NCBI RefSeq assembly: GCF_022568775.1
Contig: NZ_JAKZHW010000001.1
Coordinates: forward strand, 868,001 to 932,000
DNA length: 64,000 nucleotides
From: Sphingomonas telluris
GTDB taxonomy: Bacteria > Pseudomonadota > Alphaproteobacteria > Sphingomonadales > Sphingomonadaceae
Reading direction: 5' to 3'
In this document: one piece after another, positions 31,239 through 36,957 of the stretch
How positions within the stretch are numbered: the first letter of the stretch is position 1
Layout: every line of letters begins with the position of its first letter
The notes under the pieces: generated by a model
Seen by the model: only the letters and a program-made list of their open reading frames with translations
Databases searched by the model: none
What the model was told of the DNA's origin: nothing
Program-made: the position numbers and the translations under genes

Positions 31239-31816
31239 ACGACAACGGGCCGTACATCCTCTTCTATCTGGTCGCGGTCGTCTTCCTCGTGAGTTCCTTC
31301 ATCGGAAGGCGGGAGCCGTTGGGCAAAACGATGAAGTTGCTGCTGGCCTGGTTGGCAATTTTCGCCGTCGTCTTTGCTCTGTTCGCTTTCCGGAGCGAGT
31401 TCACCAGCTTCGGTCAGCGGCTGCGAGCCGAAGCGACCGGCAATCCGATCGCCGAGGGCAAGATCATCCGTATCCCGATCAGCGAGGACGGACATTTCTG
31501 GGTCGACGCCAAGCTCAACGGTCAGTCCGTGCGTTTTATGGTCGATAGCGGAGCAACGATCACGACGGTGTCACGCAGGACTGCCCAAGCTGCCGGTATG
31601 GACATGGACGGCTTCCCAGCGGTCGTGAGCACCGCCAATGGTTCGGCCCGCGTGAAGCAGAGCTCCGCAGACCGGTTCGAAGTGGCCTCGATAGAGCGCA
31701 GCGACTTCCCAATCGACGTAAACGAGCAGGATGACCTGAACCTGCTTGGCATGAACTTCCTGAGGTCGCTGAGCAGCTGGCGTGTCGAGGGCAATTATCT
31801 GGTGCTGCAGCCGTGA
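31235..31816 (+). CDS. Membrane-anchored retropepsin-like aspartic protease (first copy)
   Basis: A 193-residue protein. Two N-terminal membrane segments (YILFYLVAVVFLVSSFIG and LLLAWLAIFAVVFALFAF) lead to a single retropepsin domain with the active-site FMVDSGATITTV (Asp of DSGAT) and the later LNLLGMNFLRSLSSWRVEG. Such bacterial single-domain enzymes (TIGR02281-type) are expected to act as homodimers outside the inner membrane. Substrate unknown. It overlaps the previous gene and the next copy by 4 bp. Confidence 0.85.
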   Translation: MNDNGPYILFYLVAVVFLVSSFIGRREPLGKTMKLLLAWLAIFAVVFALFAFRSEFTSFGQRLRAEATGNPIAEGKIIRIPISEDGHFWVDAKLNGQSVRFMVDSGATITTVSRRTAQAAGMDMDGFPAVVSTANGSARVKQSSADRFEVASIERSDFPIDVNEQDDLNLLGMNFLRSLSSWRVEGNYLVLQP

Positions 31817-32400
31817 CGAACAGCCTGATGCTGGGCGGCGTCTATCTTCTGATGGCGATGATGCTCGTGCTCGGCTCACTCATGGCCCGGCGGGAGCCGT
31901 TCGCGCGCGCTTTGACCATGGCGCTCGCCTGGATCGCCATTTTCGCCGGCGGGTTCGTGCTGTTCACGTTTCGCGACGATCTCGGATACGTCGCGCAGCG
32001 CCTTCGTGCCGAAGCTACGGGCCAGCCCGTGGTACAGGGCCGCGAGATCCGCATCCCGATGGCCATCGACGGGCATTTTTGGGTCGACGGCCGCTTGAAC
32101 GGCAAGGAGGTCAAGTTTCTCATCGACAGCGGCGCGACGATGACGACCGTCGGACGCGACACGGCGGCGAGGGTCGGAATGCCGGTCAGCCCGACGCGCA
32201 ATCAGATCGTGCGCACCGGCAACGGCTTTATCCGCGTCGCAACTGGAACGGCGCACACGCTGCAGGTGGGCTCAATCGAGCGAAATAATATTCCGATGCA
32301 CGTTGCGGACGGCGACGATCTCAATGTTCTTGGAATGAACTTCCTGTCGTCGCTTCAGCGTTGGGGCGTCGAGGGGAGATGGCTGATCCTGGTGCCATGA
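31813..32400 (+). CDS. Membrane-anchored retropepsin-like aspartic protease (second copy)
   Basis: A 195-residue paralogue of the previous gene with the same layout: two N-terminal membrane segments, IPMAIDGHFWVDGRLNG, the active-site FLIDSGATMTTV, and NVLGMNFLSSLQRWGVEG. Start GTG at 31813 overlaps the first copy, suggesting a tandem duplication. A possible heterodimer is an inference. Its stop is 10 bp before the dif-like site at 32411. Confidence 0.85.
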   Translation: MTNSLMLGGVYLLMAMMLVLGSLMARREPFARALTMALAWIAIFAGGFVLFTFRDDLGYVAQRLRAEATGQPVVQGREIRIPMAIDGHFWVDGRLNGKEVKFLIDSGATMTTVGRDTAARVGMPVSPTRNQIVRTGNGFIRVATGTAHTLQVGSIERNNIPMHVADGDDLNVLGMNFLSSLQRWGVEGRWLILVP

Positions 32401-32410
32401 CTATGACAAA

Positions 32411-32438
32411 ACTTTACATAATACATATTATCATACTT
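32411..32438 (-). other. dif-like XerCD recombination site (left junction)
   Basis: Read on the minus strand the site is AAGTATGATAA, TATGTA, TTATGTAAAGT: two 11-bp arms around a 6-bp centre. The last arm matches the E. coli XerD arm TTATGTTAAAT at 9 of 11 bases and the first has the xATAA end of the XerC arm. Seventeen bases (32422-32438) recur at 36150-36166. The left junction keeps both arms, so it could serve as a working chromosomal dif site. Confidence 0.65.
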
Positions 32439-32494
32439 GCGCGCCGATCGTCGGAGTCGACGCGTATTGCGCTACCACCTTCACCAATGCGGAT

Positions 32495-33298
32495 TTGCTT
32501 TATGCGGAGCTGTTCGGCCTCCTAACGGCATCCGGTGCCTCTCCGCGGTGCATGTTGGGGCCAAAGGTCCCTCACTATGGCCGAAACCTGTTGTTGATGG
32601 ATCCGACCGGCCACCGGCTTGTGCAAGTCCGCTCACCGGGATCCAACCCGCATCCCTTTGTCGAGTGCAAAGGCGAAACCTCGGCGCTTATCGCCAGCTA
32701 CCTCCGGCAAGCTCACGACCACCGCCCATCACGCATCGACATCGCGCGGGATATGCGTGCACCTGGCCTGTTCCAGCGCCTGCATCGACTATCCAAACGG
32801 ATCGCCAAGAAGCACGGCGTTCGTTGGGAGCCGACAGGCGATTGGCTTACACCGGACGCCGGCCGCACGATCTACGTCGGATCGCGGCATTCTCAGACCT
32901 TCATCCGCATCTACGAAAAGGGTCTCAAATACGCGCACGATCTCGGAATTCCTCTGACCGACGAACTTCGGGAATGGGTCCGCGTCGAGGTAGAGTACAA
33001 GCCGCAAAACCCTCGCTCGAAAAGCATTGCGCGCTGCATCACACCGGATGCAATATGGGGAACCGCGCAGTGGCTTCAGCATTTCGCGGCAGAGGCGTTT
33101 TCCATGAACGTGCAGCGCATCAACATCAGCCAACGCCGCGAGAGCGACCGCGACCGCGCTTTGCGCGCCGCCTGCACGCAGTATCAGCGCCATCTTCAAT
33201 CTCTTTTCGACGATTGCGGTCACGATCCGGCGCAGTTCGGCACTGCCCTGATCAGACTCGCTAACTTGGCAGGTGGCGAAGCGGCTCAGGCCGCCTGA
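32495..33298 (+). CDS. Replication initiation protein (Rep_trans family), body of split gene
   Basis: A 267-residue open frame from a TTG at 32495. It matches rolling-circle replication initiation factors of the Rep_trans family (as in filamentous phages and pT181-type plasmids): SRIDIARDM, GRTIYVGSRHSQTFIRIYEK and EWVRVEVEYKPQN in the usual order. The frame is open upstream through CAPIVGVDAYCATTF to the 17-bp repeat at 32422 but has no start codon there. The missing start lies at 36043 across the attachment site. In the integrated state this copy is therefore probably not translated in full. Confidence 0.8.
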   Translation: MLYAELFGLLTASGASPRCMLGPKVPHYGRNLLLMDPTGHRLVQVRSPGSNPHPFVECKGETSALIASYLRQAHDHRPSRIDIARDMRAPGLFQRLHRLSKRIAKKHGVRWEPTGDWLTPDAGRTIYVGSRHSQTFIRIYEKGLKYAHDLGIPLTDELREWVRVEVEYKPQNPRSKSIARCITPDAIWGTAQWLQHFAAEAFSMNVQRINISQRRESDRDRALRAACTQYQRHLQSLFDDCGHDPAQFGTALIRLANLAGGEAAQAA

Positions 33299-33683
33299 AC
33301 CTCTTGGGCCTAACGGCCCGTCAGCCTCACCAGCCAAAAAATGTCAGAATAGACGTTACTATAATACCCGTCGGCCTCGGATTCCGACGCAGCCACACCC
33401 CGATAATGTCGCGAGCTATGAGGCGTATCGAAAGCTTTATCCTGCGAAGATCGATGTTCGGGCTCTCCTACGACAAAGGATTGCCGAGCTGCGATCTGCG
33501 CTTAGCCGCATCAGTCCCTACAGCTGGTTCGGTTGGGATAATCTTTGGCAAGAGACGATCTGCCGAATAGCCACCGCGCGAAGGCAGAGTGCGTCCTGCC
33601 CAATTACTAGCGAAACGCTCGGCGAACTTGACCGAGTTATGGAACGGGTACGGAAAGAGTTGGACGACACTCGCCCCTGCTAA
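33273..33683 (+). CDS. Hypothetical protein overlapping rep
   Basis: A 136-residue open frame from a GTG at 33273, overlapping the rep end by 26 bp. No motif is recognised. The second half (about residues 60-130) is charged and likely helical (ALLRQRIAELRSALSR, GELDRVMERVRKELDD), which is more protein-like than the competing frame at 33304-33570. It may be a small accessory protein or a decayed gene. Most of it lies between the two arms of a 12-bp inverted repeat. Confidence 0.35.
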   Translation: MAKRLRPPEPLGPNGPSASPAKKCQNRRYYNTRRPRIPTQPHPDNVASYEAYRKLYPAKIDVRALLRQRIAELRSALSRISPYSWFGWDNLWQETICRIATARRQSASCPITSETLGELDRVMERVRKELDDTRPC

Positions 33684-33717
33684 CCAGTGTTGACGTTCGC
33701 AGAGTGTCTATTCTGAC
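33343..33717. repeat. 12-bp inverted repeat pair
   Basis: GTCAGAATAGAC at 33343-33354 is repeated perfectly in inverse orientation (GTCTATTCTGAC) at 33706-33717. The right arm lies 26 bp before the start of the membrane-protein gene at 33743. It could be a pair of operator sites or the ends of a 375-bp miniature insertion; no target duplication is evident. Confidence 0.5.
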
Positions 33718-33742
33718 GCTTTGATGCTGGTAGAGTAACGGC

Positions 33743-34378
33743 ATGGACAGCTCGTCGAATTCCAGCGCCAACAAAGCTCTCGAGTGGGGCATATTGGGCG
33801 TCATTGTGGTGGGAATGATTATCTCCACCGCTGCTCTGTACCTGATGATATTGACGATAGTTGGCAGCGCCATCGCTTTGGCCGCCACCTTCCTCGGAGA
33901 CACGTTAGCCGCGAGCATACACCAACATGGCGTGCGCCCATCGGTGCAGGTCAGCTATCTTCAGCTCATTATCTACGCTTCGGCGCCAGAAATCATCGTG
34001 GTCACCTTGACGTTGGCAAGCCTCGGCAAAGACAAGCGGGAGCTACTACGAGTTGCTGTCGACCAAGGCAGTGATTGGCTCGTAAGGTTCGGAGAGCTGC
34101 TCCTCCTCGCATGCGTGTTCCAGTACGCCGCTCAAAAGATACAGTTTTGGGCTATCCAAGCTCTGGCGTTCCTAATGTTCTTATGTCTCGCCTGGCACGC
34201 GATGAAGCCCATTTGGGCGCTGGCTCGCTGGCCCGACACACAGGCACCCGCCAAGAAGCGGAACCGGGTGCTTATGCTCGCCTCGTTCGCGTTTATCATT
34301 GCGCTGACTTTCATCACATTCCTTTCGCTCAACTCCGGCCTAACGGCCCTGATCGATGCGGGAGTCGTTAGCCCCTAG
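33743..34378 (+). CDS. Polytopic membrane protein of the element
   Basis: A 211-residue protein with about five hydrophobic segments: ILGVIVVGMIISTAALYLMI, ILTIVGSAIALAATFLG, LQLIIYASAPEIIVVTLTLA, LLACVFQYAAQ to AFLMFLCLAWHA, and VLMLASFAFIIALTFITFL. No family is recognised. Its stop codon lies inside the first hairpin repeat (34375-34408). Base use is less GC-rich than in flanking chromosomal genes, in line with recent transfer. A role in phage-like assembly or in the host envelope is possible but unsupported. Confidence 0.6.
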   Translation: MDSSSNSSANKALEWGILGVIVVGMIISTAALYLMILTIVGSAIALAATFLGDTLAASIHQHGVRPSVQVSYLQLIIYASAPEIIVVTLTLASLGKDKRELLRVAVDQGSDWLVRFGELLLLACVFQYAAQKIQFWAIQALAFLMFLCLAWHAMKPIWALARWPDTQAPAKKRNRVLMLASFAFIIALTFITFLSLNSGLTALIDAGVVSP

Positions 34379-34408
34379 TGGCAGGAATGGGTGGAAAGCT
34401 GCCACTAG
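34375..34408. repeat. Hairpin repeat copy 1
   Basis: A perfect 10-bp stem, CTAGTGGCAG with CTGCCACTAG, encloses the 14-nt loop GAATGGGTGGAAAG. The core matches three other copies in the element (34863, 35181, 35489). It begins at the stop codon of the membrane-protein gene and can act as a transcription or RNA-stability hairpin. Confidence 0.65.
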
Positions 34409-34463
34409 CATTTCCAGCAGGTTCTTCGCATCGTGGTTTCATGATGAGGCCGGCGACGGGCTG

Positions 34464-34592
34464 ATGGGCACTGAGAGCTCGCTGGCAATCCTGCTCTTGC
34501 TGCTGCCTTGGATTCTGTTTCTAGGCATTGGCGGCTATGTCGTTGTGCTGACTATCCGCTTATTGAGCGGCGACGACGAGGAAGCGCCCTAG
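34464..34592 (+). CDS. Small single-pass membrane protein
   Basis: A 42-residue protein from the ATG at 34464: a short polar start (MGTESS), one membrane segment (LAILLLLLPWILFLGIGGYVVVL read as two halves), and an acidic tail (SGDDEEAP). A longer frame from 34356 runs through the hairpin repeat and is unlikely. Its size and shape recall small phage membrane or coat proteins, but this is only a resemblance. Confidence 0.45.
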   Translation: MGTESSLAILLLLLPWILFLGIGGYVVVLTIRLLSGDDEEAP

Positions 34593-34626
34593 ACTTCTGG
34601 CAATGTGTCGAAAGCGGCATTGCTCT

Positions 34627-34836
34627 CTACCTTTTAGGCCGCTCCAGAAACCTGAAGAACTTGGGCGGGTGCAGGTGCAGCGAAAGCATTGAGGCCGGTA
34701 ACAAGGTGAGCGTCATGAAGGCGAAGAGCGAAAGCGCCCAGCCGCCTTTCGGTTCAAAGACCAAGTTCGCGATGAACCCTGCCGCGAACATCAGCATGAG
34801 TAGCCATCGCGCAATTTGGAGGCGTCGCCGTGACAT
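34627..34836 (-). CDS. Small two-pass membrane protein
   Basis: A 69-residue protein with a basic N terminus (MSRRRLQIAR), two hydrophobic segments (WLLMLMFAAGFIANLVF and WALSLFAFMTLTLLPASML) and a basic C terminus (FRFLERPKR). No family is recognised. It is convergent with the preceding small gene and lies between hairpin repeats 1 and 2. Confidence 0.45.
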   Translation of the reverse strand: MSRRRLQIARWLLMLMFAAGFIANLVFEPKGGWALSLFAFMTLTLLPASMLSLHLHPPKFFRFLERPKR

Positions 34837-34862
34837 GATCTGTGAGAATGGCCGCGACGCCC

Positions 34863-34893
34863 AATGTCCGCAATGGGTGGAAAGCTGCCACTA
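34863..34893. repeat. Hairpin repeat copy 2
   Basis: The core CAATGGGTGGAAAGCTGCC followed by ACTA recurs, preceded by AATGTCCG, which is shared with copy 3. The left stem arm of copies 1 and 4 is not kept here. The last three bases form the stop codon of the minus-strand gene at 34891-35157. Confidence 0.6.
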
Positions 34894-35157
34894 CGGAGCA
34901 ACCATCTCGTTCTGGCAAACCGGGCACTTGTCGATGACAGAGACGTCCCAGAACCGCAGTAGCTTCAGGCGCTGGTTTACCCGCTGGTCCCTGAATGATG
35001 TGCCGCAATGCGTGCACTTGAGCGTCAGCAGGTACCCTACGGCTATGAACGCCGGAACCACTACAAGTTGGCTACGCGTAACAAGGTAGCCGAGCAAAAT
35101 TACGAATGACGATGCCTGCGCAGTTACAAGAGCAGACTTGGCTAGCACTCGTCTCAT
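34891..35157 (-). CDS. Membrane protein with zinc-ribbon-like Cys pairs
   Basis: An 88-residue protein with two hydrophobic segments (SSFVILLGYLVTRSQLVVVPA and the part ending AVGYLLTL) followed by two CxxC pairs, CTHCGTSF and CPVCQNE, about 30 residues apart. The spacing suggests one zinc ribbon on the cytoplasmic side. No known family is recognised. The stop lies in hairpin repeat 2 and the start lies 24 bp before repeat 3, so the gene sits as a unit between repeats. Confidence 0.55.
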   Translation of the reverse strand: MRRVLAKSALVTAQASSFVILLGYLVTRSQLVVVPAFIAVGYLLTLKCTHCGTSFRDQRVNQRLKLLRFWDVSVIDKCPVCQNEMVAP

Positions 35158-35180
35158 CCTTTAAGCGTAGCTGCCATTCC

Positions 35181-35208
35181 AATGTCCGCAATCGGTCGAA
35201 AGCTGACG
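35181..35208. repeat. Hairpin repeat copy 3
   Basis: AATGTCCGCAATCGGTCGAA followed by AGCTGACG matches copy 2 in its left half and copy 4 in its core, with two changes (ATCGG and GACG). It separates the zinc-ribbon gene from the gene at 35214. Confidence 0.55.
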
Positions 35209-35213
35209 CAACT

Positions 35214-35447
35214 TCAGACCTCGATCATTACCTCGGTCACGCCATGCTGGGCGGCCCAACTTAGCGCCTCCATCTCTGCCTGATCGGCGTTCTCAAACTC
35301 AGGGTCACTTCCGCCAAAGACCGCGCGGCCATCAATCTCAATCGCGCCAGACCACGCGTAAAGGCCACATGCGCTTCGATGGACCGCAAGTCGGTCAGCT
35401 GTGTCGGGAGCTTCATCCTTGCCGACACGCACGATCTTGATCGCCAA
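35214..35447 (-). CDS. Hypothetical small protein
   Basis: A 77-residue frame from a TTG at 35447 with GAGGGAGG six bases upstream. The protein (AIKIVRVGKDEAPDTADRLA, ending HGVTEVMIEV) has no motif I know; it contains a segment LYAWSGAIEIDGRAVFGGSD that looks like a small beta domain. The longer frame to 35705 runs through hairpin repeat 4 and is rejected. It lies between repeats 3 and 4. Confidence 0.5.
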   Translation of the reverse strand: MAIKIVRVGKDEAPDTADRLAVHRSACGLYAWSGAIEIDGRAVFGGSDPEFENADQAEMEALSWAAQHGVTEVMIEV

Positions 35448-35488
35448 CCTGGCCTCCCTCGCAATCAGCCATGCTACATCGGAATGCC

Positions 35489-35521
35489 TAATGGCAGAAA
35501 TGGGTCGAAAGCTGCCACTAG
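35489..35521. repeat. Hairpin repeat copy 4
   Basis: Stem TAATGGCAG (35489-35497) pairs with CTGCCACTA (35512-35520) with one T-G-type mismatch, around the 14-nt loop AAATGGGTCGAAAG, the same loop length as copy 1. It stands between the gene at 35214 and the ribbon-helix-helix gene; 35522-35698 holds no gene that I can support. Confidence 0.65.
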
Positions 35522-35698
35522 CCCGTTCCTGCTTCGATGGGTGGCACGAGGGTCGCGGAGCGACCGCCCGGACCGAGTGACTGCCCTTCTCGTCTGCACC
35601 CCCTGCCAAGCCAGCAACATAGCCATTGCACCACCCGTCCGGTGTGTTACACCTTAGGCTCTTAGGAACACCGGCTCGAAGTGAGGCATCGCCTGCAA

Positions 35699-36046
35699 AT
35701 GCCAACGCGTAAACCCCGTGTGAACGTCGTCGTCACCGAGGAACAACACGCGCTCCTCTTCGAGCTAGCGCGCCTTGATCCCGCCTCCGTGCCGTCGGCC
35801 TCGGCCTTCCTGCGCACTATGCTTGATCAGGTGACGCCCCTCCTTCGTAAAACAGTGCCGCTTATGCGCGCCGCTGCGGAGGAGCTGGACATGCATCGTA
35901 GCGATGCACGCGAGAAACTGCGCGGTCCGCTCGCGGAACTCCTACGGGAAATGGATCAGCTGGATTTGTTGGACGCGGCACCTGGCGCGCCCGAACCGCA
36001 GCGCAGCGAGGACGGACGCGCCAAGCGCCGCGCACCGCGCAAATGA
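35699..36046 (+). CDS. Ribbon-helix-helix DNA-binding protein
   Basis: A 115-residue protein. The N-terminal part (KPRVNVVVTEEQHALLFELA, then SVPSASAFLRTMLDQV) has the beta strand and two helices of a CopG/Arc-type ribbon-helix-helix domain; the rest is helical and ends in a basic tail (KRRAPRK). The ATG at 35699 is preferred over a GTG at 35681. Its stop overlaps the ATG at 36043 that starts the rep frame (ATGA), so in the circular element it would lead a two-gene operon with rep, probably as its copy-control or regulator. That role is inferred. Confidence 0.65.
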   Translation: MPTRKPRVNVVVTEEQHALLFELARLDPASVPSASAFLRTMLDQVTPLLRKTVPLMRAAAEELDMHRSDAREKLRGPLAELLREMDQLDLLDAAPGAPEPQRSEDGRAKRRAPRK

Positions 36047-36149
36047 CGTACACAGCTACCGAGGTAGGCGGAGCCGACCCCCATACTCTAATAGGGGGGT
36101 CTACCCCCCCCGAGGGGGCTCATCTCGCCCCAGCTATTGAGAGAGGTAG
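36043..36149 (+). CDS. 5' part of the split rep gene
   Basis: The ATG at 36043 begins MTYTATEVGGADPHTLIGG and runs in frame into the 17-bp repeat (STYYHT). At the left junction the same repeat is read in the same frame (TYYHT, then CAPIVGVDA). Joining 36043-36149 to 32422-33298 gives 984 nt, exactly 328 codons with the stop. Here the frame instead continues across the right junction into mazG. The assignment to rep rests on this frame match and on the overlap with the ribbon-helix-helix gene. Confidence 0.65.
36094..36118. other. G6/C8/G5 homopolymer hairpin within rep start
   Basis: GGGGGG (36094-36099), TCTA, CCCCCCCC (36104-36111), GA, GGGGG (36114-36118): the C-run can pair with either G-run. 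It lies in the coding start of rep, 32 bp before the attachment repeat. Rep_trans plasmids of the pT181 type have their nicking hairpin inside rep, so this may be the origin; the runs could also slip. Confidence 0.4.
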
Positions 36150-36166
36150 TACATATTATCATACTT
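36150..36166. repeat. Right attachment repeat (attR half-site)
   Basis: TACATATTATCATACTT, identical to 32422-32438. Only the centre and the XerC-like arm of the dif-like site are kept; the bases before it (GAGAGAGGTAG) do not resemble the XerD arm. CTX-type phages show the same pattern of one good and one degenerate arm. Confidence 0.65.
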
Positions 36167-36204
36167 CCGGATATGAGAGACGCATCGCTTTCCGGAGACC
36201 CCAG

Positions 36205-36957
36205 GTGACCCTGGATCGGCTGGTTGCCATCATGAAGCGGCTTCGCGACCCCAAGACCGGTTGCGAATGGGACAGCGTGCAGACCTTCTCGACGATCGCG
36301 CCGTACACGATCGAGGAAGCCTATGAGGTGGCCGACGCGATCGCGCGCGACGACATGGACGCGCTCGCGGATGAGCTTGGCGATCTGCAGCTCCAGGTCG
36401 TCTTTCACTCGCGCATGGCCGAAGAAGCCGGCAAGTTTACGCTCGAAGATGTCCTCGATCGCATCTGCGACAAGATGGAACGACGCCACCCGCACATCTT
36501 CGGCGATGCGGAGCATGGCGGCCATCATCTGTGGGAAATCATCAAGGCCGAGGAACGCTCGGCCAACCCGGACAAGAGCGCATTGGCCGGTGTGGCGTTG
36601 GCGCTGCCGGCCCTGGAACGTGCAGCGAAGCTTCAACGACGGGCAGCCCGCGTTGGCTTCGACTGGCCAAATGCGACGGGCCCACGCGCGAAGATCGACG
36701 AGGAACTGGCCGAACTGGAGCGAGAAAGCGATCACCCACGGATGCTGGAAGAGATGGGAGACCTTCTTTTCGCCGTCGTGAACCTCGCACGGCATCTTAA
36801 CATTGAACCCGAAGCCGCTCTGCGTGAGGCCAATCGAAAGTTCGAGCGGCGTTTCCGCACCATCGAGCAGGCGCCCGGCTTCGCAGACCTGTCTCTCGAG
36901 GAAAAAGAACAGCTTTGGCAGCAGGCCAAGGCCGCTCAGGCGGACTCGGTCGCCTGA
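36205..36957 (+). CDS. mazG: Nucleoside triphosphate pyrophosphohydrolase MazG
   Basis: A 250-residue house-cleaning enzyme that hydrolyses NTPs to NMP and pyrophosphate. Two MazG domains are visible: IEEAYEVADAIARDDMDALA with ELGDLQLQVVFH, and later DEELAELERES with MLEEMGDLLFAVVNLARH; both hold the Glu/Asp metal ligands. The GTG at 36205 (VTLDRLVAIMKRLRDP) matches the family start and has CGGAGA upstream. The frame is open to 36043 in the integrated element, so a 304-residue fusion could also be made. The 3' end overlaps hflX by 22 bp. Confidence 0.92.
   Translation: MTLDRLVAIMKRLRDPKTGCEWDSVQTFSTIAPYTIEEAYEVADAIARDDMDALADELGDLQLQVVFHSRMAEEAGKFTLEDVLDRICDKMERRHPHIFGDAEHGGHHLWEIIKAEERSANPDKSALAGVALALPALERAAKLQRRAARVGFDWPNATGPRAKIDEELAELERESDHPRMLEEMGDLLFAVVNLARHLNIEPEAALREANRKFERRFRTIEQAPGFADLSLEEKEQLWQQAKAAQADSVA

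What the first reader, a model, noticed from the sequence alone, without database searches (positions are those of the whole stretch)
36043..36166. rep gene split by its own attachment site and rebuilt in the circle
The frame starting at ATG 36043 enters the 17-bp repeat in the same phase as the frame that leaves the left repeat into the Rep body. Joining them gives 984 nt with no stop, 327 aa, a normal length for such proteins. The ribbon-helix-helix stop overlaps the 36043 ATG. Integration would then switch replication off by cutting the initiator gene in two. I know of no widely described example of this design.
Basis: seen in the sequence. Interest (0 to 1): 0.85.

Follow-up and report, generated by a model that had tools for sequence, protein, structure and literature searches.

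The report
Attachment site inside a replication gene
A small mobile element has slipped into the spot where this bacterium separates its chromosome copies, and doing so appears to cut its own replication gene away from its start codon and replication origin, so that it could copy itself only after popping out as a circle.

Summary
In detail: an exact 17-bp repeat bounds a 3,728-bp element, and the frame from ATG 36043 meets the left-hand Rep frame in phase. The left repeat is part of the host's dif site: a pattern from it hits 57 of 61 same-genus genomes, once each except twice in the window's own. The element's copy keeps one arm and the centre of dif but not the other arm, as in TLC-phage and gonococcal-island sites. 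Rep is a Rep_trans rolling-circle initiator related to small plasmids and inoviruses. In 13 of 14 relatives tested an origin hairpin lies just upstream of the Rep fold. Here it lies at the opposite end of the element, and only the circle brings it to 87 nt. So integration separates Rep from its only usual start codon, its upstream gene and its origin. One correction: the 41 N-terminal residues are origin DNA read as a leader, not a conserved domain; the modelled Rep fold is all in the left piece. The in-phase frame alone is weak evidence (2,056 of 5,000 shuffles). Only one such element was found. Attachment sites inside phage regulator genes are published; I found none inside rep.

The parts
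32411..32438 (-). attL: complete 28-bp dif (on the minus strand, XerC arm AAGTATGATAA, centre TATGTA, XerD arm TTATGTAAAGT; arm names by resemblance)
   Evidence: Same 28-mer in the empty site of G970; pattern in 57 of 61 same-genus genomes; the right arm equals that printed for Caulobacter crescentus and Bordetella pertussis dif in PMC2731167 (passage)
36139..36166 (-). attR: XerC arm and centre identical to dif, XerD arm replaced by CTACCTCTCTC; this arm comes from the element's own attachment site
32438..33298 (+). Rep body (286 codons plus stop), Rep_trans rolling-circle initiator without a usual start codon before its conserved first strand
   Evidence: PF02486 48.2 bits, cut-off 29.6; phrog_453; AlphaFold mean pLDDT 87.5, first strand residues 6-14; Foldseek best hit 4cij rolling-circle initiator, E 2.5e-9
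36043..36166 (+). right-hand piece of the rep frame: ATG and 41-codon leader reading through the origin hairpin and the attachment site
   Evidence: open frame; no protein alignment to the closest relative
36078..36100 (+). conserved origin hairpin CCCCCATACTCTAATAGGGGGGT (candidate double-strand origin)
   Evidence: counterpart upstream of the Rep motif in 13 of 14 relatives tested; forms a hairpin in the fold of 36060-36166, but that stretch as a whole is not unusually stable (z -1.18)
35681..36046 (+). RHH-like upstream ORF, overlapping rep ATG 36043
   Evidence: weak similarity to the ORF upstream of rep in small plasmids (pairwise E 6e-4 and 6e-5; aligned with four of them); lacks their C-terminal tail, which there encodes the hairpin
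32439..36166 (.). the integrated element, 3,728 bp
   Evidence: spacing of the two repeat copies
31813..32400 (+). chromosomal flank: retropepsin-like gene left of dif (name by resemblance, no family search)
   Evidence: its protein hits 28 of 30 same-genus dif loci
36205..36957 (+). chromosomal flank: mazG right of dif (likely native start GTG 36205)
   Evidence: MazG 130.4 bits; hit in 27 of 30 same-genus dif loci
33273..35705 (.). remaining element content: small ORFs of unknown function and four to five palindromic repeats of a dispersed family

Best explanation
The 32439-36166 segment is a small integrative mobile element that exploits the host's Xer system: a rolling-circle replicon (RHH-like gene, origin hairpin, Rep_trans initiator) inserted at chromosomal dif between a retropepsin-like gene and mazG. 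Its attachment site has a dif-identical XerC arm and centre and a degenerate XerD arm, and sits between the origin hairpin and the Rep domain, inside the translated leader of rep. In the circle the order is RHH-like gene, ATG, hairpin, attachment site, Rep domain, read as one 327-codon frame (inferred from phase and relatives). In the chromosome the Rep domain lies at the left end without a start codon, upstream gene or origin, while the start, leader and origin lie at the right end and read on into mazG. Integration would thus silence replication, and Xer excision (or a tandem junction) would restore it. Shown by sequence: site, arms, order, phase, missing start, origin conservation. Inferred: use of ATG 36043, Xer catalysis, excision, silencing.
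For: dif identity: 57 of 61 same-genus genomes, single copy in all but the window's own, reversed control 0 in each; conserved neighbours; identical 28-mer empty site in G970. Arms: orientation from PMC2731167. Rep family. Order: hairpin upstream of the Rep motif in 13 of 14 relatives tested (50-144 nt in 11; 181 and 184 nt from the match start in two inoviruses); the circle gives 87 nt. No left-side start codon. First strand is in the left piece, so TTG 32495 (residue 20) would remove it. Relatives whose rep starts before the hairpin: L061 by its ATG (48% identity over 270 residues; leader residues 1-51 modelled below pLDDT 50) and, as annotated, OR148975 and PP511689.
Against: The leader peptide is not conserved, and the in-phase open frame is reached by 2056 of 5000 shuffles. 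The leader contains C8 and G6 runs, so one sequencing error or slip would change the phase. The peptide frame read through the hairpin in L061 (YSNRGVYP) is not the one used here; in the window that other frame stops at 36138-36140. One relative (L017) has no hairpin found. No relative shows a dif-like site in its rep leader above chance (12 tested), so this is one case. GC skew in the window is only weak support: its cumulative value is highest at 31-32 kb (0.26) but reaches 0.25 at 4-5 kb as well. No reads were available to show a circle.
Confidence: 0.7

Rival explanations
1. Same element, same site, but the in-phase leader is coincidence: Rep was originally translated from a start close to the DAY motif, as in the small plasmids, that start is lost, and the element is a decaying relic. 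The site merely lies between origin and rep.
For: The 8 small-plasmid Reps read and the Erythrobacter inovirus Rep start after the hairpin; leader not conserved; phase is weak statistically; only one such element found.
Against: Rep body is open over 286 codons and shares the 20 columns that are invariant across it and 8 plasmid Reps; ATGA overlap with the upstream gene; L061 and two annotated inovirus Reps start before the hairpin.
Confidence: 0.22
2. Rep is expressed in the integrated state from a non-standard start (ATC 32447) or from chromosomal read-through, so integration does not switch it off.
For: An ATC lies in frame 12 nt before the motif; the left frame is open back to 32387 across attL.
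Against: ATC starts are very rare (general knowledge), no ATG/GTG/TTG lies in that stretch, and the origin hairpin is still 3.6 kb away at the other end.
Confidence: 0.05
3. The 17-bp repeat is not an Xer site but a target duplication or a chance repeat.
For: None found beyond its short length.
Against: The site is a conserved, single-copy sequence of the genus with the neighbour genes preserved.
Confidence: 0.02

Closest known systems
TLC-phage type and gonococcal-island type elements exploiting Xer (IMEX)
   Same: Inserted at dif; XerC arm and centre like dif, XerD arm degenerate (PMC4246890 and PMC5357621, passages); TLC phage is described there as a replication module without virion genes, as here
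   Different: Different host group; the passages read do not say where the site lies relative to the TLC rep gene
Xanthomonas phage XacF1 and Ralstonia phage phiRSS0
   Same: Xer/dif integration with attP inside a phage gene (PMC4076744 section 19 and PMC4471427 section 5, passages)
   Different: There the gene is a putative regulator or repressor, not the replication initiator
Haloarchaeal provirus SNJ2
   Same: Circularisation joins both ends into the replication operon and creates an ORF across attP; stop mutations in it abolish replication (PMC13107129 section 24 read)
   Different: Archaeal, own integrase; the ORF across attP (orf26) is one of several needed ORFs, and I did not read which ORF is the nuclease
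Archaeal suicidal integrases (SSV type) and mycobacteriophage BPs repressor
   Same: Attachment site lies inside the element's own gene, so integration alters that gene (PMC8371274 passages; PMC4557955 abstract)
   Different: Integrase or repressor, not Rep; the BPs protein changes at its C-terminus
Small Rep_trans rolling-circle plasmids (e.g. pRK1-6, pHW80V1, pAYS)
   Same: Upstream RHH-like ORF (four aligned, by eye in all eight), hairpin, Rep_trans Rep in the same order
   Different: Free plasmids; Rep starts after the hairpin; no dif-like site above chance in the rep leader

Membership tests
IMEX, TLC-phage type | Integrated at chromosomal dif | tested here: met
IMEX, TLC-phage type | attP with conserved XerC arm and centre, degenerate XerD arm | tested here: met
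   depends on the arm naming, which follows the right arm printed in PMC2731167 and the recalled E. coli convention
IMEX, TLC-phage type | No recombinase gene of its own | tested here: met
   Tyrosine recombinases: 8 Phage_integrase matches in the genome, none inside C1:900439-904166. No recombinase in the 9 element ORFs or pieces scanned; serine recombinases were not searched over all frames
IMEX, TLC-phage type | Host XerC and XerD present | tested here: inconclusive
   Three genome matches with open frames of 306, 325 and 331 aa, not assigned to XerC or XerD
IMEX, TLC-phage type | Integration and excision depend on XerC/XerD | not testable with these tools
   needs mutants
Rep_trans rolling-circle initiators | Pfam Rep_trans above cut-off and initiator fold | tested here: met
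   48.2 bits against 29.6; 4cij, 4cwc and 4cwe make up the six Foldseek hits at E <= 0.001, TM 0.40-0.51, rmsd 6.7-14.9
Rep_trans rolling-circle initiators | Catalytic tyrosine and nicking at the hairpin | not tested
   needs biochemistry
Inovirus (filamentous phage) | Zot, coat, adsorption and secretion genes | tested here: not met
   None in the 9 element ORFs or pieces scanned, while the relative L062 has Zot, secretin and coat-like matches
Element whose integration splits its own gene | Attachment site inside the coding frame | tested here: inconclusive
   In phase and open, supported by leader-bearing relatives, but use of ATG 36043 is not shown

The most novel reading that the evidence does not exclude
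A replication switch built into the attachment site: the Xer site is part of the initiator's own translated leader, next to its origin, so a single integrated copy cannot make Rep and cannot nick its chromosomal origin, while a circle, or the junction of two tandem copies, regains start codon, Rep and origin at once, with no repressor needed. In addition the leader drives an in-frame fusion to the host's mazG while integrated.
Probability: 0.45. Interest if true: 0.7.

Novelty: new variant of a known kind. Interest (0 to 1): 0.5.

Why it matters
A rolling-circle initiator that stays active beside an integrated origin should nick and damage the chromosome. Placing the host's dif sequence inside the initiator's leader would solve this with no regulator: the element is silent when integrated and active when free. 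It would extend the known cases of attP inside regulators and integrases to the initiator itself, and it is directly testable in one strain.

Tried and rejected
Rejected: Rep starting at TTG 32495, because it would remove the conserved DAY motif and the first beta-strand. Rejected: the 41 residues as a conserved N-terminal domain (plasmid Reps start at the motif; leader of L061 disordered). Rejected: a complete inovirus. I first assigned the XerC and XerD arms the other way round and changed this with the published dif table. Led nowhere: single-protein scans of viral contigs and genome contigs found no relative among 3 and 27 pattern matches; viral contigs with alignments gave 2 and 1 distant relatives; PDB by sequence gave nothing useful. 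Five of 30 same-genus dif loci have mazG further from dif; the two whose gap I listed hold a membrane-protein ORF, not a second element. Relatives not usable for the hairpin test: L016, whose contig begins inside rep, and L063, where the motif was not found; the weak hits L003, L005, L065-L067 were not examined. Papers: in 10 searches (listings) and passages, one section or one abstract of 12 papers I saw no attachment site inside a rolling-circle rep gene; the library holds open-licence papers only, so this is weak evidence of absence.

Full report
WHAT IS THERE. The window lies at C1:868001-932000 of a 3.03-Mb genome in 3 contigs. An exact 17-bp direct repeat, 3,728 bp apart, occurs at 32422-32438 and 36150-36166 and nowhere else in the window with up to 3 mismatches. 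Left of it is a retropepsin-like gene (my naming), right of it mazG. The ORF from ATG 36043 is open through the right repeat, and the upstream ORF stops at TGA 36044-36046. The left frame is open from 32387 through 33295, and the ATG frame reaches the repeat in the same phase.

THE SITE IS dif. The left copy extends to a 28-mer, 32411-32438. A 22-base pattern from it, with up to 3 mismatches, is present in 57 of 61 same-genus genomes (own included), one copy each except two in the window's own; 4 genomes had none; the reversed control pattern gave 0 in each. Loci were fetched for 30 of the matches: the retropepsin-like protein hit 28 of 30 and mazG 27 of 30; in 25 of 30 mazG lies within about half a kilobase of the site, and in 5 it lies further off. 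Genome G970 has the identical 28-mer with mazG next to it, an empty site. GC skew is weak support only: within the window the cumulative value is highest at 31-32 kb (0.26) and falls to -0.45 after it, but it also reaches 0.25 at 4-5 kb. On the minus strand the site reads AAGTATGATAA - TATGTA - TTATGTAAAGT. The last arm is identical to the last 11 bases printed for dif of Caulobacter crescentus and Bordetella pertussis in PMC2731167 (passages); by the recalled E. coli convention that is the XerD arm.

THE ELEMENT'S OWN SITE. attR shares the XerC arm and centre with dif, but its XerD arm is CTACCTCTCTC, 3 of 11 against E. coli. attL is a complete dif. This is the pattern described for TLC phage and for the gonococcal island: conserved XerC arm and centre, divergent XerD arm, with one wild-type dif at the other end of the island (PMC4246890, PMC5357621, PMC9765430; passages). 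No tyrosine recombinase lies in the element: of 8 Phage_integrase matches in the genome none falls within it.

REP AND ITS RELATIVES. The left piece, 286 codons, is Rep_trans (48.2 bits) and PHROG 453. Its AlphaFold model (mean pLDDT 87.5) is closest to solved rolling-circle initiators, 4cij at E 2.5e-9, TM about 0.5. In phages, 2 records match, both inoviruses. In plasmids, 19 records match; I fetched 8 of the 19, all of them 1.6-2.5 kb. In genomes, the single protein hit 2 of 298 and 2 of 385 (own plus one weak match each), Pfam Rep_trans hit 1 of 298 (own only), and alignments hit 4 of 396 and 5 of 397, own genome included; samples overlap, and three of the hits are weak. The close ones are L022/L061 (Porphyrobacter sp. 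SLTP, 48% identity over 270 residues) on a roughly 7.06-kb element flanked by 55-bp repeats at tRNA-Met with its own integrase, and L023/L062 (Erythrobacter ani, a 7,490-bp contig with Zot, secretin and coat-like genes, that is, an inovirus).

ORIGIN. A hairpin CCCCCAT-loop-GGGGGGT lies at 36078-36100. Tested for its loop and 3' arm, 13 of 14 relatives have a counterpart upstream of the Rep motif: 11 (8 plasmids, L061, L062, L024) at 50-144 nt, and the inoviruses L006 and L007 at 184 and 181 nt from the start of the protein match. L017 has none. L016 begins inside rep and L063 could not be placed. The window matches L061 over 23 identical nt there. In the chromosome this hairpin is at the far end from Rep; the circle would place it 67 + 20 = 87 nt upstream. 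This gene-order argument does not depend on the reading frame and is the strongest support for the circle. The fold of the whole stretch 36060-36166 is not unusually stable (z -1.18).

IS THE LEADER REAL? For: no ATG, GTG or TTG lies between the upstream stop and the motif on the left; the first beta-strand is residues 6-14, so later starts would break the fold; L061 has its only ATG before the hairpin (its two TTG alternatives lie further upstream), the annotated Rep genes of L006 (2830-4155) and L007 (3264-4511) include the hairpin (2926 and 3285), and L024 may do so, although it also has an ATG inside the hairpin; the ATG overlaps the upstream stop, as tight or overlapping spacing does in plasmids L008 and L013. 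Against: the peptide has no alignment to L061; the 8 plasmid Reps and L062 start after the hairpin; 752 of 5000 shuffles are open in the fixed frame and 2056 of 5000 give some start; C8 and G6 runs lie in the leader; the peptide frame read through the hairpin in L061 differs from the one used here. The leader of L061 is modelled as disordered (residues 1-51). I read it as a gene boundary that lies on the other side of the origin than in the plasmids, so that origin and attachment site became leader codons; the upstream ORF is correspondingly shorter than in the four plasmids aligned.

IS THE SITE IN REP SHARED? Not in what I could see. In the rep leaders of 12 relatives the best match to a generic dif is 8-11 of 16 core positions, reached by 13 to 100 of 100 shuffles; the window's left copy scores 13. 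The exact 16-mer is in no non-own locus among the first 15.

MECHANISM. Most likely: Xer integration at dif parts Rep from start codon, upstream gene and origin; the integrated element is silent and cannot nick the chromosome; excision or a tandem junction restores all at once. Shown by sequence: site, arms, order, phase, missing start. Inferred: translation from ATG 36043, Xer catalysis, excision, silencing.

PRECEDENTS. attP in a putative regulator gene, expected to be split on integration: XacF1 (PMC4076744 section 19, passage). dif inside the repressor-like ORF13 of phiRSS0 (PMC4471427, passage). attP inside a repressor gene: mycobacteriophage BPs (PMC4557955, abstract). Integrases split by their own site (PMC8371274, passages). 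Circularisation that builds the replication operon: SNJ2 (PMC13107129, section 24 read). In 10 searches I saw no attachment site inside a rolling-circle rep gene. I therefore call it a new variant of a known kind, resting on one element.

Noticed in passing
window 34374-34409, 34602-34618, 34860-34895, 35178-35213, 35487-35522: Imperfect palindromic repeats around AATGGGTSGAAAGCTG lie between possible small ORFs of the element; the core occurs 73 times in the genome with up to 1 mismatch (reversed control 0), often in clusters, like a dispersed repeat family or cassette-like array.
   Followed up: partly
window 36043-36957: The rep leader frame runs in phase across attR into mazG, giving a 304-aa ORF, so integration may put mazG behind the element's translation start.
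   Followed up: partly
L062 1-7490: A 7,490-bp contig of Erythrobacter ani carries Zot, secretin, coat-like and Rep_trans-type genes: an inovirus in a sphingomonad relative.
   Followed up: partly
L022 5374-12486: Roughly 7.06-kb element at tRNA-Met of Porphyrobacter sp. SLTP with a tyrosine integrase, a small DNA-binding protein (both named by eye), inovirus-type Rep and unrelated cargo.
   Followed up: partly
L006 2926-2948, L007 3285-3307: In two inovirus records the annotated Rep gene contains the same kind of origin hairpin near its 5' end.
   Followed up: partly
L055 1685-2938, L056 2040-3305: In some same-genus genomes a membrane-protein ORF of about 420 aa lies between dif and mazG; looks like an ordinary chromosomal gene.
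   Followed up: partly
window 36104-36111: A C8 run (and G6 at 36094) inside the rep leader could change the reading phase by slippage.
   Followed up: no
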